Part shown: in pieces, positions 1 through 34,609 of the stretch
Position numbering within the stretch: position 1 is the stretch's first letter
Layout of the letters: each line of letters begins with the position of its first letter
IMG/VR virus record: IMGVR_UViG_3300020596_000054
Coordinates: 1 to 41,140 of that record
Reading direction: 5' to 3' (one strand)
DNA from: a virus
DNA: 41,140 nt
Made by a program: the position numbers and the translations under genes
Notes under the pieces: generated by a model
Told to the model about the DNA's origin: nothing
Database searches by the model: none
The model's input: only the letters and a program-made list of their open reading frames with translations

Positions 1-52
1 CTGCTGATCAACAACGCGTCGCCGACGCCGGCGTCGCGTTGTTGATCAGCAG
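1..52. repeat. Terminal foldback inverted repeat (probable assembly artefact)
   Basis: Bases 1-18 are the exact reverse complement of 35-52. The 5 bases inside also pair after one mismatch (20-24 with 29-33). Bases 1-16 have no counterpart at the other end of the contig, whereas everything from base 17 on does. The simplest explanation is a foldback at a contig end rather than a real telomere. Confidence 0.8.
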
Positions 53-142
53 CTTGCCGGCCGTCGGATCGCCAGCAACGGCCGTGTTCCACAAGTAATC
101 GAGGCCGACATTCGGTCCGGCCGCGCCAGAAGGACCTGGATT
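17..142. repeat. Terminal direct repeat, left copy
   Basis: Bases 17-142 are identical to 41015-41140 (126 bp, offset 40,998). The repeat lies inside an otherwise continuous tail-fibre reading frame, so it marks where a circular or permuted molecule was cut open during assembly, not a biological terminal repeat. Confidence 0.92.
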
Positions 143-2506
143 GCCGTTGGCGCCAGGCTCGCCTTGCGTGCCGCGCTGGCCTTTGATCAAAACTTCGTTG
201 AGAACGGGGCTCGCCGCCGGCGAGTTGACTTGCCAGCCGAGTTCACCCTGCGCGCCAGCGCCACCAGTGAAAATACGTCCATCAGCATAACGAATGACTG
301 GCCCGTACTGCAGAACGGTTCCGCAAATAGAAAACTCGGCGATGACGCCAACCGGGTCGAGGCCAACCATGATCGCGTGCGTCTGCAGGGTTGTCGTGGA
401 TGCGCCGTCGCAGCAGTTGTGGTTGGCGTTGTAGCCACTCGCCCAGATCACATTTCCCGCGCGGATATATGTGGTCTCATTTTGTGCGCAGCCACCGATG
501 CGAATATCGGTCACCAGCCCCTGAAACGCACCGGCCGGCTGAGTAATCACGCCTTTCGACACTAAGGTGCCGTCGCCGATCTGACCGGCGTTGTTGTGTC
601 CCCAAAAGACTGCCTTGCCGGTCACGGTGATACCGCCGACGACCCCACCGTAACCGCCGCCAACGATTTTCGTAAATCCCTCGGTGTGCGGAATGGCGAC
701 AAACGAACTGCGGTTCGTCGTGTCACTCGCGCCCTGCGCCAGCTGCCCGTTGCCGTTATGGCCGGCGCCATGAAGGGCACCTGCGTTGGTCCGAACAATG
801 ATCGTGCCGGTGAAAACCGAAACCCCGTTGTCGCTGCCACTCATCGCGAGAACTTCGGCGATACCCGTCAGCGACGCGTTGATCTTGGCACGGTTCGCAC
901 TCGTCGTCGTGCCGTCGCCAAGCTGCCCGGTCGAGTTCATACCCCATCGCGCGAACTCGCCCGTCGTCAGGCGCGCCGCAACGGTGTGCGGATAGCCGCC
1001 GACCGATAGCGTGTCGACGTTGAGCAATGCCGTACCAGTCGCATTGTCGAGAACCGGCGTGATCGTTGTCGTCGACGTGCCGATGGTGACGCCGTCGCCG
1101 CGCTGGCCGTGGCTATTGCTGCCGATCGAGTAAAGCTTGTTATCGTCAGTGATGAAGAACACGACATTGGTGTCGGACTGGCTGCCGCGTGACGCGACGA
1201 TCTCGCGGATCTTGATACCGGCGTCGAAGAAATAGGCGATCCGCTTGAAGCGGAACAACGACGTCGTGTTGCCGTGACCGAGCAGGTTCGCAGCACCATC
1301 GCCGGCCGAGTGCACCCAACCGAGATCGTCGATAACGTAGTGCCGGCCATTCGAGCTGACGAGTTTCTGGATCGCGGTTGGTTGATTTTCGAACGGGATG
1401 ATTTCAGGGATCAGCGCGTCGCGTGTCCCAAAGATCATGTTTTTGTTGTTCGCGCCGTCACCCCACGCCATCACGGTTTTGCTGTCGAACACGGCCGCGC
1501 GCGCTAAGCCAGAATTGAACCGCCCAGGTGAGATGTGCGACGCAATGCGGCCAGCTAAGGACGATGCCCCGCCTCCGACCGAAACCCAATTGGCGCCGTC
1601 ATAGGCCACGCTGCGCCGCTCAGCCAGCGCAACGGCGCGCCAGCCTTTCGCCGGCGTCACGTAGGACCAGGCGCCAGCGACGCGCATCGCGACCTGATCG
1701 GATTTGCCAGCCCAAACGCCGGTCGCACCGGCCGGGATGATCCAGGCCAGGCCGTCGGCCGGTGCGCCTGGCGGCACCGTAAGCAGCATCGTCTCCACGA
1801 CCAGCGTCACGGTGCCGGTTGCCAACTTGGCCAGTGTCACAGCACCAGTCTGCAGGTCCGCCGTCTCGACGGCAGCCGTTGCAATGTCCCCGGCCTGCAC
1901 CTGGTTGCGGATCGCGAGGTCGCCGAGACCGAGGTTTGTGCGTGCCGCTTCGGCGGTTGTGGCGCCGGTTCCGCCCTGGTCGATCTGGATCACGCCGAGC
2001 TCGCCCATCAGGCCCAGCACTTCGTCGACGTCGATCGCGACGATGCCACCGTCGGCGCCGAGCGCCAGCAGCATGTTCGTCTCTTGCGGGATCAGCACAT
2101 TGCCTGCGCTGGCGTCGTCGCCGGCGCGGCGCACGGCCCGCTGCACTTCGCGGCGCAGCTCCTGGACCATCAGCACCAGCCGGTCGAAATCGGCATTGAA
2201 CGTCGGCGGGTTGAAATCACCGAAACTGACATAAGACGAGCTACGCGATGGCAACAGATTGCCCTCGAGCAGCAGACGGTCACCCTCGGCCACGGTGCCG
2301 AGCAGCGTGACCTGAGCCGATGCGCTGAGCAGCAGCAGGCTATAATCCGTGTTCAGCACCAGCGTCGTGCGGCCACCCCCGCGAATTCGCGTGACGGTGA
2401 GATCGGCAGCGGCGAACAGCGGATAGGGGAAATCGTGCGGGCCCGTCTGACCAGCCGTCAGGTCGTAGCTTCTCGACCGGTTCGAAAATGAAATCGCGCC
2501 CATCAT
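17..2506 (-). CDS. Tail fibre with RCC1-like propeller, 5' part (gene continues at 41014)
   Basis: Receptor-binding fibre. Residues 1-125 resemble the T7 gp17 N-terminal domain that attaches fibres to the tail. Residues 178-195 carry the common fibre motif GGTGATTAEAARTNLGLG. Residues 235-310 resemble DUF2793. About 330-775 contain repeats of the RCC1 beta-propeller type (WGMNSTGQLGDGTTTS, SIGSNSHGQRGDG, WGHNNAGQIGDGT). About 775-800 are collagen-like G-x-y triplets (GQRGTQGEPGANGNPG). The start is ATG 2506 or the next ATG at 2503, after AAGGGGG. The reading frame is open to base 17; bases 1-16 are a foldback that creates a false stop. Because 17-142 equals 41015-41140, the frame continues at 41014 down to 40043, giving a protein of 1153 aa. 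Domain names are by motif recognition, not a search. Confidence 0.9.
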
Positions 2507-2525: not shown

Positions 2526-2565
2526 CGACAATAGGCGCGTTGACGGGCGATAGACTTTTTAGCGA
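2526..2565 (-). promoter_or_regulatory. Module-boundary element, copy A
   Basis: Read on the minus strand: AAAAGTCTATCGCCCGTC, then CCTAT. The AAAA run overlaps the TAA stop of the membrane/HTH gene ending at 2559; the fibre gene starts about 50 bp downstream. The same element occurs at 20158-20192 and 27328-27363. Function unknown: promoter, antitermination site or RNA-processing site are all possible. Confidence 0.6.
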
Positions 2566-3491
2566 GCCAGGGCGCGCGCCCGGTATCGGCTGGCCGAGGC
2601 CTTCGGCAGATTGCACGCGGACACCACGTCGCGGGTGCGCGGCGGGTGGCCGTGGCGGGACGTGTAGGCGCGGACGTATTCGTTGACCATCCGCTCGCGT
2701 TCGGTCAGCTCGTCCCGGGTCGGCGGCGGCAGGTCAGGCGCCGGGACCGAGCGGCGCGATGCCGGCGCCGGCCGGATCTCGTGCACGAAGCCCATGCCGA
2801 AGAACACGACCGTCGTCAGCTCGACGATCAGTGTCACGAGCGCGGGCATGACGAGCACCAGGACCTCGACGGCCCTGGCTTCCGGGCCGCCGACGAACAC
2901 CGCCCACAGCTTCGCGAAATGCTGATAGCCGCCGTTCTCGGTTCGCTCAGGCCCCAGCAGCGCAATCTTGGCTCGGATCAGGGCGACGTGACTGTCGGCG
3001 CGATCGCGGGCGCGTTCGGCATCGTCTCGCGTGGTGATGCGACCGTCGCACTTCTTGCCCTTGCCGCTGCCGCATTCGACCGCCGCCTGGCCCTTGGCGA
3101 GCTCGAGGGCCGACTTGGCCGCCTCGAGATCGGCTTCGGCCTGGACGAGCTCGCGGCTCATGGCTTGCCGCTGCAGGTTCAGGTTGCGGATACCGGCATT
3201 CTTGGCCTGCTGGGTTTCGGCGTTGCGCATGGTCGACGTGACCACGACATAGGCGGTCCCAGCGATGAAGATCAGGCCGAGACCGAGCGCTGCGATCCGC
3301 ATCGCCTTGAGCTCGATCCAGAAGAAGTGCCCGGCGGCGATCGTCGCGATCAGAGCGCCAACGGACATGATGTGCGAGAGGGTGATCGGCTGGCCGGCGG
3401 CGACGTCGTCGAGCAGGACGCGGGCCGTGATCCCGGCAAAAAGCAAGCCGAGCGATATTGCCCCGATCCGGGGCTTGGTGTAGCTGGTCAT
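2559..3491 (-). CDS. Membrane / coiled-coil / C-terminal HTH protein
   Basis: 310 aa, not a family I can name. Hydrophobic segments at about 10-27, 39-58 and 64-84 are followed by a long helical, coiled-coil-like region (90-180) containing a cysteine pair (C140, C148 in VECGSGKGKKCDG). Another membrane segment follows at 205-235. The C-terminus (262-308, MVNEYVRAYTSRHGHPPRTRDVV...) looks like a cytoplasmic winged or plain HTH. The same overall design is seen in the 472-aa protein at 31318-32736, although the sequences differ. It lies in the cargo region between the fibre and an antirepressor-like gene and has its own candidate promoter at 3569-3597. It could be a superinfection-exclusion or membrane-sensing regulator; this is inference. 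Confidence 0.82.
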   Translation of the reverse strand: MTSYTKPRIGAISLGLLFAGITARVLLDDVAAGQPITLSHIMSVGALIATIAAGHFFWIELKAMRIAALGLGLIFIAGTAYVVVTSTMRNAETQQAKNAGIRNLNLQRQAMSRELVQAEADLEAAKSALELAKGQAAVECGSGKGKKCDGRITTRDDAERARDRADSHVALIRAKIALLGPERTENGGYQHFAKLWAVFVGGPEARAVEVLVLVMPALVTLIVELTTVVFFGMGFVHEIRPAPASRRSVPAPDLPPPTRDELTERERMVNEYVRAYTSRHGHPPRTRDVVSACNLPKASASRYRARALAR

Positions 3492-5196: not shown

Positions 5197-7728
5197 TCAG
5201 TTCGCCAGCCTCGGCCCCCGCTTCGGCGCGGTCGCGCCAGGATCCCACCAGAAGCCGTTGCCATAGTCCTTCTTCTGTTTTTGCATCTGCCGGCGGAACG
5301 CGGCGCTCGCTTCCGGATCGACCATACGCTGCAGTTGCTGCAGCACGACGCGCTCGTAGGCTGACCTCAAATACCAGAGCGACCCGCCTGGGGTGTTCTG
5401 GCCGAGAAAGCGGATCAGTTCGCGCCCCGTATTCGTTTTCTCACCTTGCAGATACTCGGCGACGTTGCCGCTCGTCAGGCTCAGCAGGCCGGCAACCAAG
5501 TCGCCCGTCGGACCGACGACGGTGCGCGCCAAACCGCCCCCCATCCTGTTCTGCTCAGCCGCGAGGAAGTCGCCGTAGATGCCCAGGCCACCACCCTGCA
5601 GAATGGCGCCACCTATGAACTTCATGTTGTTCATCGGTCGGGGATCTTTGCCTTTTGCCATTTCCTTCAGCTGCATTGCGAGCGCTCCGTAGAGAGTCGT
5701 TGTGATCAGCAGGCCGACGGCATAACCGGCGCCGCGCCAGAACCCGTTCTGCACCATTTCAGTCGCGATCCGCTGCGACTGCAGCATGGCGACGGACAAG
5801 CCGAACATCTTGAACTGGCCGAATGAGCGAAACACTTCATCCTTCACCTCGCCCCTTTCTAGTCCTCCGTAGGCGTTGGCCTTCGCACGCAGCGTGCCCT
5901 CAGGTGTCGAATATTCCCGCTCCTGCAGGATCATCTCGAGGTAGCGCTCAGCGATGTTTTCTCCGCCACGGCCAGCAGCAGCAAGATCACGACCGAGCTC
6001 ACTTGGCTGCAGCAGCTCGACGGCGCGAGGCTGGCCAGTTCCGTCAAGGCGCATGGCGTCCCAATCGGTGGCCGTTAGTCCGTACCGCTGCATGGTTCGA
6101 CGGAGCCGAAGCGGCAGCTGAGTGAAGTCCTGCGCCGTTCGGCTGGCGAGCTCGCCCATGAACGCCAATCCGAAAGCATGCTTGCCGCTCTGCGTCCAGG
6201 CCTGCAAGCCAGACCAGGCAATGGTGCGGTCGGCGAGGAACTGCGTCCATTCCGGCCCCTGCATCGTGCCCGCCCACCGCGCTTCGGCGTGCAGCATGCG
6301 GGTTGCCGTGTCCAGGATCATCCCGCCGGCGACGAGCTCGCGCTTGGTGCCCGTCGCGAACGACTGCAGGATCTGATCGTAGGTACGCAGAACAGGAAGG
6401 CCGGCAAAGGCCCGCGCTATCTGCTGGAACCCGACGTCCGTCACGGCCGACAGCGCAGCACCACCCAGCTTGGAGGCGACGTTCATGTTCCGGACTGCAC
6501 CAAAAACGTCAGCGATGCGCTCGTTCACAGCGCTCGCGGATCCTCGGTACATGTCCCACATGTCGGTCGATAGCTTGATCATCGACCTGGCGTAATCTTC
6601 AGGGTCCTTCGACGCCAGCCACGAGCGCCCCTTTTCAAACGGCCGGCCCAGATACTCCGAGACAGCAGGAAAGTGCGCCGGCAGGTGTGCGGCTCGCAGG
6701 GATGCTTGACGCATCACGAAGTTCTGCACGTACAGCAGTGTCGACGATGGGTTCGGGCCAAGGATCTCCATTGCCGCAATATCTTCAGACATGCCCCTAA
6801 TGTGATCCATCATCGCGGCGAACGGGTTAGCCCCGCCTCCGAACTCGCGATTATATTCGAGCCAAGTGTCGGCGTTGCGGAAGTGCAGAAAGCGGGCCTC
6901 AGCGCGTTGATTCGAGATAGCACCCAGACCACGCCTGGTCGCCGTCGCCTGCCGTTCGAGCCAGCCGTCTGACGTGATGTTGTCGAAGATGTAGCGCAGC
7001 GACTGCTGCAAGTCGGCCGGCGTCATGGGTCCGCCGGTGAGGGGATGCCGCATGCGCGCCATGTCCAGGCGCGGTTCGATGTAGGCACGCCAGGTGTCAA
7101 ACCCTGCACCCATGAGCGCCAGGCGATTATGGACCTGGGGCAAGAACCATCCGTTCAACTGTCCGATCGCGCCGCCGGCGGCGTTGAACCGCGACCGCAG
7201 ATCTTCGGCGACCTGCAGCCACGCCCGGGCAAAGCCAGCTGCAGCGGGATCACCCGTGCCTTGCCCTGCCGCTTCGCGCACGAGGTTTTCGAGGCGAGCC
7301 GTATTGCGGGTCTGGCCGGTGACCCAGGTCCGCCGAAACTCATGCAGGAGTTCCTCTAGCTGCCCTTGAGCGAGGCCCATGATGGCATTCGACCTGCCGA
7401 CGACCGAGCTCATACCGGCTGGCATCTGCACCAGTCCGTTGTGCTCGATTAAGGCCACCATGGCGGCAGCCGGATCTGGTTCACCACGAGCGTTGCGATA
7501 GGCGGTGACGAAGCCCTCGACGCGTTGGCGGGCTGCATCAGCCAAGAGGCCAGCACGACGTTGCTGTGCGGCCTGGTTCATCAGCCGCGCAGCGATTTCG
7601 GCCGTCGCCTGGTTCGTATTGCCGTAGTGCTGCGTCAGCGCCGCATGCAGGCGCGCCATCGCGTCGGCTTCATCTTGCGTGATCTCGCCGCCGGCGACGC
7701 CGTTCGCCAAGCAATTCTGGATCGTCAT
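5197..7728 (-). CDS. Internal virion protein (ejection protein, C-terminal member)
   Basis: 843 aa, mostly helical. It lies last in the internal-virion operon and overlaps the 1654-aa gene by ATGA (7725-7728). Its C-terminal third contains a membrane-like segment (GAGYAVGLLITTTLYGALAM) and a region typical of large podovirus ejection proteins (FIGGAILQGGGLGIYGDFL, then LVAGLLSLTSGN and TPGGSLWYLRSAYERVVL). By position it replaces part of T7 gp16, which forms the trans-envelope channel during DNA entry. Identification rests on gene order and on resemblance to such C-terminal modules. Confidence 0.78.
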   Translation of the reverse strand: MTIQNCLANGVAGGEITQDEADAMARLHAALTQHYGNTNQATAEIAARLMNQAAQQRRAGLLADAARQRVEGFVTAYRNARGEPDPAAAMVALIEHNGLVQMPAGMSSVVGRSNAIMGLAQGQLEELLHEFRRTWVTGQTRNTARLENLVREAAGQGTGDPAAAGFARAWLQVAEDLRSRFNAAGGAIGQLNGWFLPQVHNRLALMGAGFDTWRAYIEPRLDMARMRHPLTGGPMTPADLQQSLRYIFDNITSDGWLERQATATRRGLGAISNQRAEARFLHFRNADTWLEYNREFGGGANPFAAMMDHIRGMSEDIAAMEILGPNPSSTLLYVQNFVMRQASLRAAHLPAHFPAVSEYLGRPFEKGRSWLASKDPEDYARSMIKLSTDMWDMYRGSASAVNERIADVFGAVRNMNVASKLGGAALSAVTDVGFQQIARAFAGLPVLRTYDQILQSFATGTKRELVAGGMILDTATRMLHAEARWAGTMQGPEWTQFLADRTIAWSGLQAWTQSGKHAFGLAFMGELASRTAQDFTQLPLRLRRTMQRYGLTATDWDAMRLDGTGQPRAVELLQPSELGRDLAAAGRGGENIAERYLEMILQEREYSTPEGTLRAKANAYGGLERGEVKDEVFRSFGQFKMFGLSVAMLQSQRIATEMVQNGFWRGAGYAVGLLITTTLYGALAMQLKEMAKGKDPRPMNNMKFIGGAILQGGGLGIYGDFLAAEQNRMGGGLARTVVGPTGDLVAGLLSLTSGNVAEYLQGEKTNTGRELIRFLGQNTPGGSLWYLRSAYERVVLQQLQRMVDPEASAAFRRQMQKQKKDYGNGFWWDPGATAPKRGPRLAN

Positions 7729-10700
7729 TTCTTGCAGGCCTCCACCACGTCACCCAGGTGTTTCGTCCGATCGGCCATGTCGAGATCAGCCGCACGCTCG
7801 CGGAACGCCGCTCGCATCTTCTCAGCCTTTACGCGATGCATGATTCCCGAGACCGCATTGCGCGTGATATCGGTGTCGAACCGCGTCGACAGCATGAGCG
7901 CAATCTGGTTGTAGCTCAGCCCTTCGATATCTTCAGACGTCAGGACATCGAGCATTTCCGACGTCCAAACTCGCGGCTGTCCAGATGCGCTTTCTCTTCC
8001 AGCTTGCTTGCTAATCTTTAAACGCACGACCTGGGTTCTGATCTGGCTCGGAGTAATTTTCCGGCCCGCCAACTTCGACAATGCAGTCGCGATGACCCCG
8101 AGATCGGGATCGACCCTGTCAAACTGTTTGGGCGCGTCCACGCCAAGCGCGTCGGTCAAACGTCGCAGCGTTACAGGACCGGCATTGATCTGTCCTGCGA
8201 GGATCTGAGAGATTTTCGGTTCTGACACACCAGAAGCGCGCGACAGCGTGCGTTGCGAGTGTTTCTTCTCCGCCATCAGATCTCTCAAGTAGCTGGGAAA
8301 GTCGGCCCGCGACTGCGTGTAGAGCCGCTCGAGTTCCAGATTTAGCGTGTCGTTCCAGACGTCATCAACTTTCGCCACCCGCGTGCGCGAGACGACCCGC
8401 CTCAATTGGCCATCGATTGCGTAGGTCGATACGGGTCGACCGAGCACGGTTGACATGTGTGTCGCGATTTCGGAAATCGATTTTCCTTCCTTATAAAGAC
8501 GTCCGATTTCGGCGAGCCCTTCAGGCGTCCACTGGACCGCCCTGCGTGATGACACGAGCTGATCAATTCGCCACCAGACTTGGCCGCGGGCGATCGTCTC
8601 AGCGTCCACGTCGAAGCCGAACTGCGCCTTGATCGCCGCCGCGATTTCGGCCGTCGAGTTGCCAGCCTTCCACAGCTTCAGTTCGAGCGCCGCGACCTTC
8701 TTGCCAAGGTCCGCTGCCGCGCGCTCGATTTCACTCGCCGGCACGTCCCGCAGCGGTCGCGCAGGCCCGCCCCTATTGGCGATCGCCTGTTCAATACCGT
8801 GCGACTGATTGGCGAGTTCCGCCCAATAATCGGCCTCCCATTCATCCGACAACTGCCGACGCGCGCCGGCGAAGATGATCTGCTCCGGCCGCGCGACGTC
8901 TTCGGTGAAGCGCATCGATATCCCGATGCGTTCCGCACGCTGGAAGCCAATGCGAGCTTCGACGTTGCGAGCCTCGACCTCGCCGGCGAGGCGCTTGTAA
9001 AGGGTTACCCAATCGAGCGCGTTGAGTTCGTCGCGCTGCGCCTTCAGATCGGAAAGCTGGCGCACGAGAGATCCGACGCTGGCGTCGTCGCCGGCCGCCT
9101 CCAGCGCCGCAACCCGATCGAGGATCCCACCAGCCGCAGCATCAACGTCGGCCTTGGCGCGGCGCACCATCCCGGCAATGACGACTGGACTGCCGCCCTC
9201 GGCCCATCCTTCCTTGCGCTGGATCGCGTGCTGCAGCTCATGAGCAATTTTCTGGATCGCCTGCGCCGCCGACGGCGCCGTCACCTTGATTAATCGCGCA
9301 TCCTGGTCGATCGACCCAGACGCCGGCTTGCCCTTGTGGTGGTGGACCTCGACCCGAAACTTCATGAGCTCGGGATACGCTTCAAAGACGAGGGGGTTGT
9401 CGATGATCTCGTCCGCCCGCCCGGCAACGGTGCGCGTCTCGAATTGACCGCTTGCGATCTTGGCCGCTCGCCCTTTCAGCTGCGCGTCCTTATCCGAGAC
9501 CTCGAACTTCCAATTGCCGTCGGCGCCGCGCTCCCAGCCGGTCGCCTTGCGGATCTCGAAGTAGTCTACGCCGGCGCGCTCCATGCCCTGCGCCTGCTCG
9601 AGCCGCTGCAGGTTCGCAGTTTTCGCGCGCTCGCCGGCGAACGCGAACATAGCTGGCGCGTTCTCATTGGCGGCCGGAATGGCCGTCTCCAATCGTCCAT
9701 TGAAAACTTTGTCCAGGACCGCTCGAATTGGCTCAATGTCGGAACCTTTTAAGGCCCCGTGTTGCAGCAGCTCTAGCATGTGCGACACGCCTTCTTCTTC
9801 AATCGAAGAGGCGGGATCACGATGTGTGCTATACTGGCGCCTGTAGACGGATCGGATCGTTTCGATGTCCCCAGCTTCAGCAAGCCATGGCCGAGCCGTC
9901 TTCGTGAAAAACTCGCTCGTTCCCATCTCAAGAACACGGAGCTTTTCCGCATGCCCGACAAGAAGCTTCCAGTCCCGGTCACTGATCAAACGAAGCGCCC
10001 GGTAAGCATGGACCAACTCGTGGAAGAGGGTGCCGACGAGTTGCTCGGCGATTTTGCCGGCGCCACCGTCGACCTCCGGCAGGCCGTAATGGAAGAACGC
10101 GATCGCGTTACGGCTGGGGCGCCAGGTCGCCTGAAGGTTCCGAAGGTATGACCACGGTCCTTCCAGAGTGAATTCACCGCCGCGAATGTCTTGAAAAACG
10201 GCCTTCACAAAGACGTCTGGCTTGCCCCGGAACTCGATGTCCTTAACGGGGCTGATCCTCAGTAGTGTGCCGACAGAAACCTCATCTGGCATAACGTCCC
10301 GATACCGCTCGATGGTCCGGGCAGCGCTGTCGGCCACTGCACCTTTAACCTCATAGGTCTGGCCAAGTGTGATCAGCATATCGGCGTGATCGCGTTCTGG
10401 CAGATCGCCGAAGTTATCGATCGAATGCAGTAGATCTTTTTCGTTCTCGTTGGCGGCATTCTGCAGACGATCGGCCTGCGCCTTTGCTTCGGCACCAAAC
10501 GGATCGTCGATCCGGTGAGGGGCAAGTGCGGTGCTTCCGCCCCGTTCCTTGAGCAGGCCGCCTAGGCCTTCGCGCTCGAGGATCGTCGCCACTTGGCGGG
10601 CGAATGCACCGGCGGCGAGCTTCGGCTTGACGCCTGAATTCACCGCCAGCGCCGCTTCCTGCAGCAGATCCGAAACGCGGCCGGGCACCTGCGCCAGGCG

Positions 10701-12689
10701 CTCGACCAATGTGCTCAGTTTCTCGGCGAGCTCCGCCTTCTCGACGTTGGCTTCGCGCTCGAGAACGTTGCCGACTTGCTCGATCCGGCCCGCCTCGCGC
10801 TCGAGCAGCGAAAACACCCGCTTGTCGACCTTCAGAGCCTTCAAGGCACTGTCGAGGACCTGCGTCCGCTCCGGCAACAGCTCGCGCACGGCAGCGTGCG
10901 CTCCGAACCGCGTCGCATGAATGTCGACGGCAGTCGGCTCGGCCAGCAATTGACCCAGGAAGAGCCGCACTTGCTGAGCGCTTTTGAGATCGGCGCGGCC
11001 CAAATCCGTCACCAGCTTCGAATGCCGGCTGGTATTGGAGACCAGGTCGCCGACGATAGCCGCGTGATTGGCTGGGATCTCGCCGGCGACAACTTTGTTG
11101 AAGGCGTCGGGACTGAGCTTCGCGAGGCCCGTCGCCTGGCGCATCTTATAGTCCGACAGGGGCAGCGATCCGTCGACGAGCTCGGGCTTGTTGCGCATGA
11201 CGATCGCCATGTCGAGGGGCGACGCCGAGAGCTCCTTCAGGTTCTGATAGGCAGCGGCCGTTCGCGCATCGTCCAGCGTCCAGCCGTCGGCCTCACGGAA
11301 CACATAGGCGACGGGTTTCTGACCGGCCGCCTCGGCCTGACGCGCACGGCCTTGCAATACGAATGAGCCATCGACCCGCTCGAAAGCCACTGCGACGCCA
11401 CTGCCGCCAAGCTGAAGCCCGTCGGGATCGGTCGCAACCTTTGCAGGTTCGATCTCCCGGAACGTCACTGGCTTGCCCTCGACCACCTGAGCCGAGCCTG
11501 GCGCCGCATTGCCCGACAAGTCGGGTCTCTCACGGGCTGGTGCCGTATACCTGGCGGCGTCACCGATCGGCGGCGCTTCCGGGTCCAGGCTGCGCTGCAT
11601 GGCCGCCGCCATACGCTCCAGGTGTTCGCCCCGATCGATATCGGGCGGGGTTCCCCACTTCAGATCGTGCTCGAGCTCTTGCAGGGCACCGCGCACAGCC
11701 GGATCCGATCTCGCACCCGTCTGCTCGGCCAAGTTTGCTAGCGCTTCGTCATCTCCGTCAATCGCACGACGCAGCAGCGAGCCCTCAGGAGCTCGCTGAG
11801 CGGCTTCGTCGAGGGCGGCTAGGGGATCATCGGGCGGTGCACGATACGGCGCTGGCGGCTCGCCTGGGCCCGCCGGCGGCACACTCCCGTCAGGCGTCGG
11901 CTCCGGCGTTGTTCGATTGAGCCTGTTCTTGATCCCGCGATACGCGCCACGCACCCCCGCATCGACGCCAAAGCCGAACAGGAACGCAGCCCCCACGCTG
12001 GTTGCCGCCTGCTGAAGTCCATGGGACATCCCGGCTTCCTGGCGCCAGGATTGCACGAATGGCTGCGCCAACGTTTCCGCACCCGCGTTGACGATTCCCT
12101 GCTTGATCCCCATCCAGATCACGGCGCGAGCGCCAGGAGCCACCACACCGAACGGGCCGGCGGCCATCGAGGCTATGTTGATCGGATCGGTGACGGCGGC
12201 GCGCAGACCCGCCGCAACCCAGGCGGCATATTTCTCGGGGCCTTGATAGCGACTGAAGGTGTCGTCTTCTTTGACCTCGGCATCGCGCGCGAGTTTGCGC
12301 GCGTCGAGGATCACCGGTCGCGTCGCCTGGATCATGTCCCGGAATTCGGGATACCGATGCTCCAGGTCCTCCAGGTTGCGCTGGAAGTCGCGGGCAATGA
12401 ACGAGGTGTAGCTTCCGAGGTCGCCCCCGTTGGCGTTGTGCTCGCGGTACTGACGATTGAGCTCACGCGACGTGTGGCGCAGCGGGTTGTCGAGGCGGAT
12501 CCCCGTGGCCTTGTAGACCTGGTCGATCCGCGTGTCGTAGGCCTCTTCTTCGGCCGTGTAGCCGGCGGCGAACTCGCCGCCCAGCTGAATGGATCTTAGG
12601 CTGTCGGCGTAAACTTCACTCAGCGTCGACGTCTCACCGCTCAAAGCGCCGGACGACATGTCGAGCTTGCGGTCCTTGAGGAAAATCAT
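7725..12689 (-). CDS. Giant ejection protein: ParB-like, two zincin motifs, C-terminal HTH array
   Basis: 1654 aa, placed where T7-like phages encode gp16. Residues 1-250 are helical with weakly hydrophobic stretches, like ejection proteins. About 400-560 resemble the ParB-like domain of large polyvalent proteins (VTFREIEPAKVAT, FVLQGRARQAEA). A metalloprotease-type HELVH sits at 890-894 with a possible third ligand in EEEGVSH (964-970). A second site, IAHELQHAIQRKEGWAEGG, has HELQH at 1150-1154 and GEVEARNVEAR at about 1236-1246, as in polyvalent-protein domain LPD23. The C-terminus contains HTH-like units: about 1333-1380, GcrA-like 1387-1432 (WTPEGLAEIGRLYKEGKS), XRE-like 1465-1516 (SQRTLSRASGVSEPKISQIL), about 1527-1560, and GcrA-like 1575-1626 (GLSYNQIALML, TRNAVSGIMHRVKAEKM). 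It overlaps both neighbours by ATGA. Confidence 0.85.
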   Translation of the reverse strand: MIFLKDRKLDMSSGALSGETSTLSEVYADSLRSIQLGGEFAAGYTAEEEAYDTRIDQVYKATGIRLDNPLRHTSRELNRQYREHNANGGDLGSYTSFIARDFQRNLEDLEHRYPEFRDMIQATRPVILDARKLARDAEVKEDDTFSRYQGPEKYAAWVAAGLRAAVTDPINIASMAAGPFGVVAPGARAVIWMGIKQGIVNAGAETLAQPFVQSWRQEAGMSHGLQQAATSVGAAFLFGFGVDAGVRGAYRGIKNRLNRTTPEPTPDGSVPPAGPGEPPAPYRAPPDDPLAALDEAAQRAPEGSLLRRAIDGDDEALANLAEQTGARSDPAVRGALQELEHDLKWGTPPDIDRGEHLERMAAAMQRSLDPEAPPIGDAARYTAPARERPDLSGNAAPGSAQVVEGKPVTFREIEPAKVATDPDGLQLGGSGVAVAFERVDGSFVLQGRARQAEAAGQKPVAYVFREADGWTLDDARTAAAYQNLKELSASPLDMAIVMRNKPELVDGSLPLSDYKMRQATGLAKLSPDAFNKVVAGEIPANHAAIVGDLVSNTSRHSKLVTDLGRADLKSAQQVRLFLGQLLAEPTAVDIHATRFGAHAAVRELLPERTQVLDSALKALKVDKRVFSLLEREAGRIEQVGNVLEREANVEKAELAEKLSTLVERLAQVPGRVSDLLQEAALAVNSGVKPKLAAGAFARQVATILEREGLGGLLKERGGSTALAPHRIDDPFGAEAKAQADRLQNAANENEKDLLHSIDNFGDLPERDHADMLITLGQTYEVKGAVADSAARTIERYRDVMPDEVSVGTLLRISPVKDIEFRGKPDVFVKAVFQDIRGGEFTLEGPWSYLRNLQATWRPSRNAIAFFHYGLPEVDGGAGKIAEQLVGTLFHELVHAYRALRLISDRDWKLLVGHAEKLRVLEMGTSEFFTKTARPWLAEAGDIETIRSVYRRQYSTHRDPASSIEEEGVSHMLELLQHGALKGSDIEPIRAVLDKVFNGRLETAIPAANENAPAMFAFAGERAKTANLQRLEQAQGMERAGVDYFEIRKATGWERGADGNWKFEVSDKDAQLKGRAAKIASGQFETRTVAGRADEIIDNPLVFEAYPELMKFRVEVHHHKGKPASGSIDQDARLIKVTAPSAAQAIQKIAHELQHAIQRKEGWAEGGSPVVIAGMVRRAKADVDAAAGGILDRVAALEAAGDDASVGSLVRQLSDLKAQRDELNALDWVTLYKRLAGEVEARNVEARIGFQRAERIGISMRFTEDVARPEQIIFAGARRQLSDEWEADYWAELANQSHGIEQAIANRGGPARPLRDVPASEIERAAADLGKKVAALELKLWKAGNSTAEIAAAIKAQFGFDVDAETIARGQVWWRIDQLVSSRRAVQWTPEGLAEIGRLYKEGKSISEIATHMSTVLGRPVSTYAIDGQLRRVVSRTRVAKVDDVWNDTLNLELERLYTQSRADFPSYLRDLMAEKKHSQRTLSRASGVSEPKISQILAGQINAGPVTLRRLTDALGVDAPKQFDRVDPDLGVIATALSKLAGRKITPSQIRTQVVRLKISKQAGRESASGQPRVWTSEMLDVLTSEDIEGLSYNQIALMLSTRFDTDITRNAVSGIMHRVKAEKMRAAFRERAADLDMADRTKHLGDVVEACKK

Positions 12690-14935
12690 TGGCCGCCTCC
12701 TGCGAACAGGTCCGGCCGACGTTTGCGCAGGATCGGGCTGAGCTTTCCGAAGTCGATTTCAAATTTCTGGCCGGGCTTGTCGCGGAAGACCCAACGCTCA
12801 CCACCAGGTGTCGACGGGTCGCCCGTCGAAACGGCATATCGCCCGTTCGCAACTTGAACGAGCGTGCCGGCTTTGACGCGATCGAGCGACACCGGCTTAC
12901 CATCTTGCCCGACTGGCAGGCCGAGGCCGGCCGCGGCAAGATCCTCGGGCTTGATCATCCGAATGGCGTCGCGCCAACCGTCCTGCTTCAGCTCGGGGGG
13001 CAGGATGATGCGATTGCTGCCGGACCACCAGCCTTGATAGACGATGCCCCCGTAGGTCTCGCCGCCGACGGTGTGCTCGCCGATGATTTCCTTGAGCCCC
13101 TGCTTCCACAGCTCCGGCTCGAACGTCGTCTTGCCCGCGCGGCGGGCGCGCACCTCGTAGACACGATCGGCCAGATCGAGGGCTGGGGCCTCGGACGCGC
13201 CCATGTCCTTCATCACATCGAAGAGCACATCGTGCGCGGCGGCACGCTGATCCTTACCGCTCGGAGCGAGCGGCTTGAAACCTTCGACTTTTTTCAGTGC
13301 GATGCCGTTTGCTGCATCAGTGACGATCGCCGGCGGCTTGCCATTGGGGTTCGGCAACTGATGAACCAACATGCCGAGCAGCGCCATCTTGCCGGCCTGG
13401 TCCTTGCCCAGCTCTTTGAACGCTGCCTGCGCGCGGTCACCGAAACCGGTAGCCAGTGTCGACGCCACTGCGACGAGCTCGTCCCCCCCTCGCTCAGAAA
13501 TCGTTTGGAGGGCCTTACGTTCGTCGAGCTTGAAGTAAACGGGATCCCGGCCATACTCGCGCGCGACCGCGTCCGCCTGGACGACACGGGCCTGCACCGT
13601 CACAGCGGTCTTCTCAGGACTGGAAAAGTCGAGCGGCACTATCGTCGCGAGCCCGACTTTCTCGGCCCATGCCAGCTGATCCTGGCTCAGCTCTTTGCGC
13701 ATCGTGTCGAGCAAGGTTTCGGCTAGCCCGAACTTTCGAACCTCGCGCGGCGAGGTGCCCTCGGCTTGCATGCGATCGCGCTCGCGCTCGATCCACCCGT
13801 CGAGCTCAGCCGGCTTCAATCGGCGCACGGCGCCCGTGAAGTGCAGCAGGTCCTCGGCCTCGGCGAGTGCCCCCGCCGTCTCAGCGGTGCCCGTTGCCGC
13901 CACGCGGGATCTCAGTGCCGCCATTTGCTCCGGTGCCGGTGCAAACCCCTTTTCAGCCATTCGCGCGACGGCCGTCACTTCGGCGTCGACCTTTGCCGTC
14001 GACGTGTTCTGCTCGACGCGTGCGCGGCGCAATTCGCCCTCGAGCATGCCCGTGACTTGGCGGAACGACTTCAAATCATAAACGGCCGAGACGCCCCGGC
14101 TCTTGCCGAAATCATCTTCCATTTCTTTGATGAACGCCGCCTTGCCCTCGAGCGATGGCACGCGGTCGAACGCGCCGAGGATCCTCGCCGTCGTGATCTC
14201 TTCGGCCGCGTTGCGAACGAGCAGCTTCGCTTGTTCAGGCTGCACCAGAGGCTGCCCGTTCGGGCCACGCCGGCGCAGCGCGGCGCCAATGTCGGCGAGC
14301 TCGCCGGCGAGGGCCTGGTCGGCCGTCGGATCTAGACCGAGGCCGAACGCTTTCTGGTGCAACCCCTTGAGCCGGGTGGCGAGTTCATCCTGCAGGCTCG
14401 CGCGCTGTTCGTGCGCGATCCGCTCGGCCTGGTCGCGCGTCGCCTGGCGCATGAAGGCCAGCGATGATCGCTGCAGCTGCAGCTCAACATCCGGCCGCAC
14501 TTCCGGCAGCGTCTGGTCGATCCATGCCCGGCGCTTTTCGCCGAGGACCTGCTGCAGCTTGGCCGGGTCGCCACGGTACTTCTCGTATGCGCCGGCGAGA
14601 TCCGCCTCGAGAGTGACCTGCGTTTTGGCGCGGTACGTGTCGAGACCGGCTTTGTCGAATGCCTCGCCGCGGATCGTGAGATTTTTCGTCGGCCTGAACT
14701 CAGGATCGAGACCGGCGAGCCGTCCCGTCTCGGCACCTTCGACGGCCGCCGCGTGATCAGCCAGTTTGCCGATCTTGTCGCCGATCGCCGCGAAGCCGGC
14801 CGCTGCTGTGTTGAACGCCTTGTCCCACCCTTCGTCGACCACGGCGAAACCTGCCTGCGCCGGATCGACCTTGGCGTCGGCGCTCAGTTCCGTGACGACA
14901 CGCTGCAGCCCGCGCTGCCGATTGGGTTCGGTCAT
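12686..14935 (-). CDS. Internal virion protein (gp15-like position)
   Basis: 749 aa, highly charged and helical, without membrane segments or enzymatic motifs that I can recognise. It lies between the Ala/Gly-rich gp14-like protein and the 1654-aa protein and overlaps the latter by ATGA (12686-12689). In T7-like phages this slot encodes gp15, which with gp14 and gp16 leaves the capsid and builds the DNA-ejection conduit. The C-terminal part (WWSGSNRIILPPELKQ, then GTLVQVANGRYAVSTGDPS) looks like a small beta domain. Function is assigned by synteny. Confidence 0.78.
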   Translation of the reverse strand: MTEPNRQRGLQRVVTELSADAKVDPAQAGFAVVDEGWDKAFNTAAAGFAAIGDKIGKLADHAAAVEGAETGRLAGLDPEFRPTKNLTIRGEAFDKAGLDTYRAKTQVTLEADLAGAYEKYRGDPAKLQQVLGEKRRAWIDQTLPEVRPDVELQLQRSSLAFMRQATRDQAERIAHEQRASLQDELATRLKGLHQKAFGLGLDPTADQALAGELADIGAALRRRGPNGQPLVQPEQAKLLVRNAAEEITTARILGAFDRVPSLEGKAAFIKEMEDDFGKSRGVSAVYDLKSFRQVTGMLEGELRRARVEQNTSTAKVDAEVTAVARMAEKGFAPAPEQMAALRSRVAATGTAETAGALAEAEDLLHFTGAVRRLKPAELDGWIERERDRMQAEGTSPREVRKFGLAETLLDTMRKELSQDQLAWAEKVGLATIVPLDFSSPEKTAVTVQARVVQADAVAREYGRDPVYFKLDERKALQTISERGGDELVAVASTLATGFGDRAQAAFKELGKDQAGKMALLGMLVHQLPNPNGKPPAIVTDAANGIALKKVEGFKPLAPSGKDQRAAAHDVLFDVMKDMGASEAPALDLADRVYEVRARRAGKTTFEPELWKQGLKEIIGEHTVGGETYGGIVYQGWWSGSNRIILPPELKQDGWRDAIRMIKPEDLAAAGLGLPVGQDGKPVSLDRVKAGTLVQVANGRYAVSTGDPSTPGGERWVFRDKPGQKFEIDFGKLSPILRKRRPDLFAGGGQ

Positions 14936-33438: not shown

Positions 33439-33697
33439 GCGGCCTCGCATCGGTTACGGGGTGGACGGACTACGCCACACAACGCGGCCGACAGGGCCTT
33501 ACGGACGAAAAGTCCGGCCCCGATATGCTGCACACTGATCGGGGCCGGGAGGTTAGGTGTCGCGGTCTAGGCGCAACACCGGAAGGACGCTAGACACAAA
33601 TTTGCTTTACGTGCTTCGGCAAATCTGGTCAACCGTTGAGCTACGTGCAGTGTCATTTACGTGTTGGTGTGCCCCGGCGGTTGCAAAATGCCGCCCC
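33439..33697. promoter_or_regulatory. Divergent switch region with hairpin and repeated TTTACGTG
   Basis: About 260 bp between the leftward early operon and the rightward XRE gene. A perfect 11-bp inverted repeat, CCGGCCCCGAT (33514-33524) and ATCGGGGCCGG (33538-33548), has a 13-nt loop. Three copies of (TT)TACGTG lie at 33606-33613, 33642-33647 and 33656-33663, and TTTGC/GCAAA face each other around the first copy. These are candidate operators for the adjacent XRE regulator. No clear promoter hexamers seen. Confidence 0.55.
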
Positions 33698-33973
33698 ATG
33701 GAAAGGTTTCACACTCGCATCATGCGCATCTTCGGGCAGCAGCTGAAAGCCGCGCGCATCGACGCCGGTTTCCGCACGGCTAAAGAGTTCGCTGACGCGC
33801 TCGGCGTCGAGCCTCCGACCTATCGGTACTGGGAACGCGGCAAGTCGCTTCCCGATCTCGTGACCGTCGCCCGCATCTGCAAATTGCTGCAGCGGGACGC
33901 CAACTATTTTTTGCCCGATGCGCTTTCAGGCACCGACGCGCGGCGGGGAAACGACGGCAGCCGCGCCGCCTAA
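33698..33973 (+). CDS. XRE-family transcriptional regulator (candidate phage repressor)
   Basis: 91 aa from ATG 33698 (MERFHTRIMRIFGQQLKAAR); the next ATG at 33722 is also plausible. It contains one HTH: FGQQLKAARIDAGFRTAKEF, ADALGVEPPTYRYWERGKSL, then PDLVTVARICKLL. There is no peptidase or dimerisation domain like lambda CI, so it is a short repressor or Cro-type protein. It is divergent from the replication operon and heads the rightward lysogeny genes, the usual position of the master regulator. Confidence 0.85.
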   Translation: MERFHTRIMRIFGQQLKAARIDAGFRTAKEFADALGVEPPTYRYWERGKSLPDLVTVARICKLLQRDANYFLPDALSGTDARRGNDGSRAA

Positions 33974-34201
33974 AAGGTCGCCCCCTCAGCCACATTCGTC
34001 TCGTCGTCCGGAACGACTGACGAACTTCTGCCACACCTAAACGCAGAACAGATTTACTTTTTTGATTGACGACGAGAGTCGAGGTAAATTACTTTTACTT
34101 CGCTTCGGTCCGTTTGCCGAAGCACGAAGCGGGGTAACGAAGGTGAGGCGTCAGCGATCCAGCCTTGGTCACTGGCGCCTTTCCCATTCCGGGAGATCGA
34201 C
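33974..34201. promoter_or_regulatory. Intergenic region with candidate promoter and inverted ATTTAC/GTAAAT
   Basis: TTGATT (34062-34067), 17 bp and TAAATT (34085-34090) form a fair sigma70 promoter facing the genes at 34202 onward. ATTTAC (34052-34057) and GTAAAT (34084-34089) flank it as an inverted repeat, a possible operator. Confidence 0.42.
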
Positions 34202-34609
34202 ATGCAAACACAGCAGAACTTGACCTGGTCGCGCGTGGCCAGGAACACCGACTACGCCACCGACGGCGTTCGGGCGTACCGCATCGCCTTCGACGGTAGG
34301 GTGTTCGTCGCCGAAGTTTCACTCATCCGCCGGCGGGACGTGCTCTCGCGTAGCGAGTTCACCCGCAAAGTCGCAGCGCAGGACTTTTGTGCAGCGTTCG
34401 CAAGCAACCTGGCGCGCCAGGTGTTCCTCGAGACGATCCTCGCTAACGCCTTCGACGCCGCCGCCCGCACCACGTTTACCAAGCGGCACGCCGCACGTCA
34501 CATCCTTGCCGAGCTGCAACGCGCTGGCTTCGAATTCAGTTTCAAGGGCGGGCTGGCCACCGCTGACGTCACTGAGGTCGAGCAGGCGAGCGAGGCGGCC
34601 AGCGCATGA
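34202..34609 (+). CDS. Unknown protein, rightward operon
   Basis: 135 aa, preceded by GGGAGA. The N-terminus looks beta-rich (VRAYRIAFDGRVFVAEVSLI) and the rest helical (FASNLARQVFLETILANAFD). Not recognised. It overlaps the next gene by ATGA and begins a run of small genes between the regulator and the integrase, where phages commonly carry accessory genes. Confidence 0.7.
   Translation: MQTQQNLTWSRVARNTDYATDGVRAYRIAFDGRVFVAEVSLIRRRDVLSRSEFTRKVAAQDFCAAFASNLARQVFLETILANAFDAAARTTFTKRHAARHILAELQRAGFEFSFKGGLATADVTEVEQASEAASA

What the first reader, a model, noticed from the sequence alone, without database searches (positions are those of the whole stretch)
7725..9000. Predicted ejected protein ends in a string of HTH domains, two of them GcrA-like and one XRE-like
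The 1654-aa protein in the gp16 slot has, from about residue 1333, several HTH-like units: GcrA-type at 1387-1432 and 1575-1626 and an XRE-type at 1465-1516. Virion ejection proteins normally form a DNA conduit. A member carrying domains related to GcrA, the alphaproteobacterial cell-cycle regulator, could bind host promoters or the incoming genome immediately after ejection. I know of no described phage ejection protein with this architecture. HTH and GcrA calls are by pattern; virion location is by synteny.
Basis: partly seen in the sequence, partly recalled or inferred. Interest (0 to 1): 0.88.

Follow-up and report, generated by a model that had tools for sequence, protein, structure and literature searches.

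The report
Injected phage protein with DNA-binding cargo
A virus of alphaproteobacteria carries, in the gene slot for a protein that is injected into the host with its DNA, a giant protein that ends in a row of DNA-binding units, two of them resembling the host's own cell-cycle regulator GcrA, followed by a lone cysteine that may lock it to the neighbouring injected protein.

Summary
The 1654-aa protein (12689..7725, minus strand) has an XRE domain (1467-1519) and a GcrA-type DNA-binding domain (1574-1624), both over Pfam's cut-offs; a weaker GcrA-like unit (1385-1436) beats 2000 shuffles, and two more degenerate copies complete a four-unit array. It is not a GcrA: the sigma-binding half is absent.

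The protein is the gp16-slot protein of an epsilon15/phiV10-like temperate podovirus. In 131 relatives the C-terminal part of this slot holds interchangeable cargo (Zeta-toxin kinases, PBECR nucleases, acetyltransferases, ART, MutS-I), so it is a polyvalent protein in the sense of Iyer et al. 2017. The HTH array is one rare cargo, shared only with one other viral lineage. The rest of the protein has a ParB-fold core, LPD23 and two zincin motifs.

Unexpectedly, the gp15/gp16/gp17 trio has almost no cysteine: none in gp15, one in the gp16 tail, one at gp17 residue 6. In two independent gp16-gp17 fusions both are gone, which predicts a tail-to-head disulfide. The phage genome also avoids GANTC, the CcrM/GcrA site, 13-fold.

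Virion packaging, injection and DNA targets are inferred, not shown. I rate it a new variant of a known kind.

The parts
7725..12689 (-). gp16-slot polyvalent protein, 1654 aa, single Cys (C1652)
11910..12689 (-). N-terminal part (aa 1-260) shared with the short gp16-slot proteins of relatives
   Evidence: blastp against 153 slot proteins, e.g. L126 41% over 21-744
10590..11507 (-). conserved core (aa 395-700); a homologue folds as ParB/Noc; this copy lacks the DGHQR (ParB-box) segment
10008..10022 (-). first zincin-type HExxH motif (HELVH, aa 890-894)
   Evidence: sequence; conserved as HELGH in L009
9474..9644 (-). LPD23, large polyvalent protein associated domain (aa 1016-1072)
   Evidence: Pfam E 2.5e-18
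9228..9242 (-). second zincin-type HExxH motif (HELQH, aa 1150-1154)
   Evidence: sequence; conserved in L009, HETQH in L165
8559..8708 (-). HTH-like unit 1 (aa 1328-1377)
   Evidence: repeat profile (not significant alone in this protein); AF2 pLDDT about 80 in this stretch
8382..8537 (-). GcrA-like HTH unit 2 (aa 1385-1436)
   Evidence: AF2 pLDDT about 77 in its HTH part
8133..8291 (-). XRE/Cro-CI type HTH (aa 1467-1519), absent from the relative L009
   Evidence: Pfam E 5e-9, over cut-off; alignment
8007..8144 (-). degenerate HTH-like unit 3 (aa 1516-1561)
7818..7970 (-). GcrA-type HTH unit 4 (aa 1574-1624), recognition-helix segment TRNAVSGIMHR
   Evidence: Pfam E 1.2e-8, over cut-off; PDB 5yiu
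7728..7772 (-). conserved C-terminal tail ending EACKK with the only Cys (C1652, 7734-7736)
5197..7728 (-). gp17 homologue, 843 aa, single Cys at residue 6 (7711-7713)
   Evidence: phrog_684 E 1.9e-155
12686..14935 (-). gp15-slot protein, 749 aa, no Cys
   Evidence: synteny with phiV10 p18; phrog_992 E 9.7e-8

Best explanation
This is the gp16-type protein of an epsilon15-like temperate podovirus: packed in the head, ejected ahead of or with the DNA, and built as a cargo carrier. Its N-terminal part and ParB-fold core belong to the delivery apparatus. Residues about 745-1640 are a polyvalent cargo: two zincin-type peptidase motifs around LPD23, then an array of four GcrA-like HTH units with an XRE domain inserted. 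The last residues return to the family's conserved tail with its single cysteine. Most likely the HTH array works as a DNA-binding effector in the host cytoplasm in the first minutes of infection, perhaps freed by the zincin domains. It would occupy host or phage DNA sites (repression, occlusion or protection), not activate sigma-70 in GcrA's way, because the sigma-binding domain is missing. Shown here: domains, slot, repeat array, variable cargo in relatives, cysteine pattern. Inferred: packaging, ejection, cleavage, disulfide, DNA binding, targets.
For: HTH and GcrA domain hits over curated cut-offs; GcrA-DBD profile and repeat tests against shuffles. Slot by synteny with phiV10/epsilon15 gp15-16-17. 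Cargo variability: Pfam on the C-terminal 380 aa of 131 slot proteins gives Zeta_toxin in 19, PBECR1 in 7, an acetyltransferase family in 3, and single cases of ART-PolyVal, ddrB-ParB, Bro-N, SLT and MutS_I. Relatives L126 and L022 have only the core (about 793 aa, 39-41% identity), so the extra 900 aa are an add-on. The only relative with the array (L009) has a gp17 that is sister to those of L022 and L126, which lack it, so cargo is mosaic. LPD domains and HExxH peptidases are polyvalent hallmarks (PMC5512222). T7 gp16-C reaches the cytoplasm and binds DNA (PMC8954989). The gp16 core fold is ParB/Noc.
Against: No virion proteomics and no binding data. AF2 of the C-terminal region is poor overall (mean pLDDT 53, two sequences) and Foldseek on it has no significant match. 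Only two viral lineages carry the array, so conservation cannot be used to infer function; the GcrA recognition helix is not kept in L009. Net charge of unit 4 is -3.
Confidence: 0.6

Rival explanations
1. The HTH array is part of the delivery machine: it grips the incoming phage DNA non-specifically, as T7 gp16-C does, to ratchet or pause genome entry, and has no regulatory target.
For: T7 gp16-C binds DNA without sequence specificity and mutations in it change genome translocation (PMC8954989). The core has a ParB/Noc fold, itself a DNA clamp family. Unit degeneracy and the lost recognition helix in L009 fit non-specific binding.
Against: 131 relatives fill the same place with unrelated enzymes or nothing recognisable and still presumably deliver DNA. 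XRE and unit 4 keep intact specific-type HTH signatures over Pfam cut-offs.
Confidence: 0.25
2. It is a host-directed GANTC binder: the GcrA-like units compete with host GcrA at methylated GANTC promoters and block cell-cycle genes at once after ejection.
For: Unit 4 keeps TRNAV.G..HR of the GcrA recognition helix. The phage itself has only 12 GANTC sites against 157 expected, the only strongly avoided palindrome of its type, and 6 against 45.6 in synonymous shuffles, so GANTC binding would fall on the host. Phages with free-standing GcrA exist (PMC3556154, PMC6630229).
Against: GANTC avoidance is general in alphaproteobacterial relatives (median about 0.2), with or without the array, so it need not be linked. 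Five extra residues sit in the turn of unit 4 relative to GcrA. No sigma-binding domain.
Confidence: 0.12
3. The protein is not packaged, or is cleaved before packaging, so the HTH part acts late, in the producing cell (for example on late promoters or DNA packaging).
For: Phage P1 DdrB is cut before encapsidation (PMC5512222). Two HExxH motifs lie just before the array.
Against: The conserved Cys tail of the gp16 family follows the array, which suggests the array travels with a tail that the virion needs. N4 vRNAP, with the same peptidase type, is packaged uncut (PMC5512222).
Confidence: 0.15

Closest known systems
Phage polyvalent proteins (Iyer et al. 2017, PMC5512222)
   Same: Very large multidomain protein in the virion-gene neighbourhood, LPD-type domain, two zincin-type motifs, DNA-binding domain at one end
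   Different: That paper's main text reports HTH domains only as rare 'other HTH domains' and never mentions GcrA; a four-unit GcrA-like array plus XRE is not described there
Epsilon15/phiV10 gp16 (phiV10 p19)
   Same: Gene position between gp15 and gp17, C-terminal tail with the only Cys
   Different: phiV10 protein has 600 aa and none of the cargo
GcrA of Caulobacter and other alphaproteobacteria
   Same: N-terminal DNA-binding domain, including the TRNAV.G..HR helix, in unit 4
   Different: No sigma-interacting domain; 23 bits against a 280-bit equivalog cut-off; embedded in a virion-type protein
T7 gp16 C-terminal part
   Same: C-terminal part of the largest ejection protein, in host cytoplasm by current models, DNA binding
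   Different: T7's is non-specific and structural; no HTH array or peptidases mentioned in the passages read (PMC8954989)
IMG/VR contigs 3300031159_000007 and 3300002523_000005 (L009/L167)
   Same: Full-length relative: core, LPD23, both HExxH motifs, four-unit array, Cys tail
   Different: No XRE domain; units much less GcrA-like; L167 is cut by its contig end

Membership tests
Polyvalent proteins (phage type) | several unrelated domains in one polypeptide | tested here: met
   ParB-fold core, LPD23, HTH_31, GcrA DBD; HExxH motifs by sequence
Polyvalent proteins (phage type) | LPD or zincin metallopeptidase domain | tested here: met
   LPD23 E 2.5e-18; HELVH and HELQH sites conserved as HExxH in L009. 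The zincin fold itself was not modelled
Polyvalent proteins (phage type) | encoded among virion genes | tested here: met
   between gp15 and gp17 homologues
Polyvalent proteins (phage type) | injected into the host | not testable with these tools
   needs virion and infection proteomics
GcrA | N-terminal DNA-binding domain | tested here: met
   Pfam 35.9 bits over 26.9 at 1575-1634; weaker second unit
GcrA | sigma-70-interacting domain / full-length equivalog score | tested here: not met
   profile 3-57 of 155 only; 23 bits against 280
GcrA | binding to m6A-methylated GANTC | not testable with these tools
   binding assay needed
XRE family HTH | Cro/CI-type HTH over curated cut-off | tested here: met
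   HTH_31 36.8/27 and HTH_3 27.8/23 bits
Epsilon15-type gp16 ejection protein | gene position and homologous N-terminal/core region | tested here: met
   114 of 153 slot proteins match P0001 at E below 0.01
Epsilon15-type gp16 ejection protein | presence in virion and ejection | not testable with these tools
   inferred from gene order and epsilon15 literature
ParB/Noc | ParB fold of the core domain | tested here: met
   AF2 pLDDT 86.9 on homologue L126, Foldseek E 3e-5 to 8e-4, all nine best hits ParB/Noc
ParB/Noc | nucleotide-binding box (DGHQR segment) in this copy | tested here: not met
   segment missing in P0001, present in the relatives examined

The most novel reading that the evidence does not exclude
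Epsilon15-like podoviruses join their two largest ejection proteins, gp16 and gp17, tail to head by one conserved disulfide (C-terminal Cys of gp16 to Cys6 of gp17), so that whatever cargo sits in front of the gp16 tail stays tied to the delivery complex until reduced in the host cytoplasm; in this phage the cargo is a GcrA/XRE-like DNA-binding array that acts on DNA as soon as it is released.
Probability: 0.35. Interest if true: 0.85.

Novelty: new variant of a known kind. Interest (0 to 1): 0.62.

Why it matters
If right, a phage delivers ready-made DNA-binding proteins built partly like the host's cell-cycle regulator together with its genome, acting before any phage gene is expressed. The survey shows that the gp16 slot of a whole phage group is an interchangeable cargo position, which makes it a place to look for injected effectors. 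The cysteine pattern gives a simple, testable hypothesis for how ejection proteins are held together, in phages as well studied as epsilon15.

Tried and rejected
GcrA activator in GcrA's own way: rejected, no sigma-interacting domain. Chance HTH patterns: rejected by shuffles. HTH array as a general feature of the slot: rejected, no third case in 153 slot proteins, in viral contigs or full-length in 385 alphaproteobacterial genomes. Tail Cys as a by-product of the gp17 ribosome-binding site: rejected, kept in 34 of 36 cases with genes over 15 nt apart. Structure of the array: AF2 with two sequences failed outside units 1-2, Foldseek not significant. Homologous array in named phages or plasmids: none. 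PDB relatives of gp17: none. More gp16-gp17 fusions in about 780 genomes: none. Literature on disulfides in podophage ejection proteins: nothing in the papers read. A 'helix-turn-helix' in phage Peru-2 P2_38 is an alpha-hairpin, not a DNA-binding HTH. A sigma-70-like promoter at the GANTC at 34076: not found by the consensus scan.

Full report
What is there. The ORF 7725..12689 (-) encodes 1654 aa. Pfam gives LPD23 at 1016-1072 (E 2.5e-18), HTH_31/HTH_3 at 1467-1519 (E 5e-9 and 2.6e-6, both over cut-off) and GcrA at 1575-1634 (E 1.2e-8, over cut-off, but only positions 3-57 of 155). The unit at 1385-1436 has no Pfam GcrA hit, but a profile from ten true GcrA DNA-binding domains, taken from alphaproteobacterial genomes, ranks 1574-1623 (13.9 bits) and 1385-1420 (11.2 bits) as the two best places of the whole protein, above the best of 2000 shuffles (8.6 bits). 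Two more copies of the same helical unit lie at 1328-1377 and 1516-1561. With each position left out of training, unit 2 scores 17.4 bits, unit 4 9.2 and unit 3 6.4, each over 500 shuffles; unit 1 only does so in the relative L009 (16.8 bits). A profile of the region has the GcrA DNA-binding domain as its best PDB hit (E 0.0043). AlphaFold models units 1 and 2 as helical HTH-like folds (pLDDT about 70-83) but fails on the rest with only two sequences.

The slot. The gene lies between a gp15-slot protein (P0003) and a gp17 homologue (P0002; phrog_684 E 1.9e-155), the same order as phiV10 p18-p19-p20, whose middle gene is annotated as similar to epsilon15 gp16. A head-tail connector, a major head protein, a terminase, a BRO-N protein and an integrase point to a temperate podovirus. 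Reviews group epsilon15 with the podophages that eject internal proteins (PMC8954989). That this protein is in the virion is inference from synteny.

The slot is a cargo position. I used gp17 as an anchor to collect 158 viral and prophage loci, the prophages mostly from alphaproteobacteria, and with the annotated phages extracted the gp16-slot ORF from 153 loci. Complete ones run from about 530 to 1873 aa. Relatives L126 (Hyphomicrobium MAG) and L022 have only the first 745 residues plus a short tail (39-41% identity). In the C-terminal 380 aa of 131 non-redundant members Pfam finds Zeta toxin kinases (19), PBECR1 nucleases (7), acetyltransferases (3) and single cases of ART-PolyVal, ddrB-ParB, Bro-N, transglycosylase SLT and MutS_I; GcrA and XRE occur in the window's protein alone. 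The conserved core (395-745) could not be named by sequence, but a model of its homologue in L126 (46 sequences, pLDDT 86.9) has the ParB/Noc fold: all nine Foldseek hits under 1e-3 are ParB or Noc. The window's copy has lost the DGHQR box. These are features of the polyvalent proteins of Iyer et al. (PMC5512222): zincin-like peptidases, DNA-binding domains including rare 'other HTH domains', virion-gene context.

How rare the array is. The only other carriers found are L009 and its near-identical sister L167, which is cut by its contig end. L009 shares 34% identity over residues 761-1653, has four units and no XRE, and its units score at most 1.9 bits with the GcrA profile. In a gp17 tree (quick method; the careful search did not finish) L009 is sister to L022/L126, which lack the cargo, while the window's gp17 is sister to L008, which carries another cargo. 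The cargo is thus distributed against the gp17 tree.

Single cysteines. In 133 of 153 slot proteins there is exactly one cysteine, and in 132 of these it lies in the last 14 residues; in the window it is C1652 of 1654. gp17 has Cys6 in 118 of 118 loci with a matching N-terminus, and exactly one Cys in 117 of 120. gp15 has none in 115 of 121, while upstream tail ORFs have 0.48%. phiV10 shows the same: gp16 Cys596 of 600, and a single Cys near the gp17 N-terminus. The tail Cys is kept whether or not the genes overlap (116 of 117 and 34 of 36), so it is not a ribosome-binding-site effect. In L008 gp16 and gp17 are fused into one 2318-aa ORF with no Cys at all, the gp17 Cys6 position being Leu. 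In L165 a second fusion, open at the contig's 5' end, has no Cys in 1744 aa. The two fusions sit apart in the tree. Of 218 split gp17 ORFs, 214 keep a Cys far from the C-terminus; the four others are truncated or frameshifted, and two of those still show it. The simplest reading is a disulfide between the gp16 tail and gp17 residue 6 that is not needed once the chains are one. Two fusions are few, some loci are near-duplicates, and both fusions come from metagenome or MAG contigs.

GANTC. The window has 12 GANTC sites against 157 expected (ratio 0.08); the next lowest of the 16 palindromes of this form is 0.61. Synonymous codon shuffles of 13 genes give 45.6 on average (minimum 25 in 300) against 6 observed. 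Related viral and prophage loci have medians near 0.2, phiV10 0.79 and MPK9 0.98; chromosomal GcrA loci 0.49. This fits a host with CcrM and GcrA. If unit 4 still read GANTC, its sites would lie on the host chromosome; but avoidance is general and needs no link to the array.

How it most likely works. I favour a DNA-binding effector delivered with the genome, in the place where relatives carry kinases and nucleases. The zincin motifs may cut it free, as proposed for polyvalent proteins. A GcrA-type sigma contact is unlikely because the domain for it is missing. A DNA-grip role as in T7 gp16-C is the main rival. Neither binding nor injection has been shown.

Noticed in passing
window 7734-7736 and 7711-7713; L002-L258: gp15/gp16/gp17 of epsilon15-like phages have 0/1/1 cysteines: only one near the gp16 C-terminus and one at gp17 residue 6; both are gone in two independent gp16-gp17 fusions (L008, L165). 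Predicts a tail-to-head disulfide.
   Followed up: partly
window 1-41140: GANTC is avoided 13-fold (12 against 157), with no site between 12093 and 25978; general in alphaproteobacterial relatives, not seen in phiV10 and MPK9.
   Followed up: partly
window 34076: One of the 12 remaining GANTC sites lies in the intergenic region between an XRE-like repressor ORF (33557-33973) and the ORF at 34202; no consensus promoter was found there.
   Followed up: partly
L126 8769-9908, equivalent to window 10455-11507: Core of the gp16-slot protein has a ParB/Noc fold with an ADGHQR box; the window's copy has lost that box.
   Followed up: yes
gp16-slot ORFs of L002-L164: Slot carries Zeta toxin kinase in 19 and PBECR1 nuclease in 7 of 131 members: a likely source of undescribed injected effectors.
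   Followed up: partly
window 8-2506: Tail fibre-like protein with RCC1 (beta-propeller) repeats, DUF2793 and a collagen-like stretch.
   Followed up: no
window 2559-3491: Protein with hydrophobic N-terminal stretches and a C-terminal LexA-like HTH just below the cut-off (22.1 against 23.7 bits).
   Followed up: no
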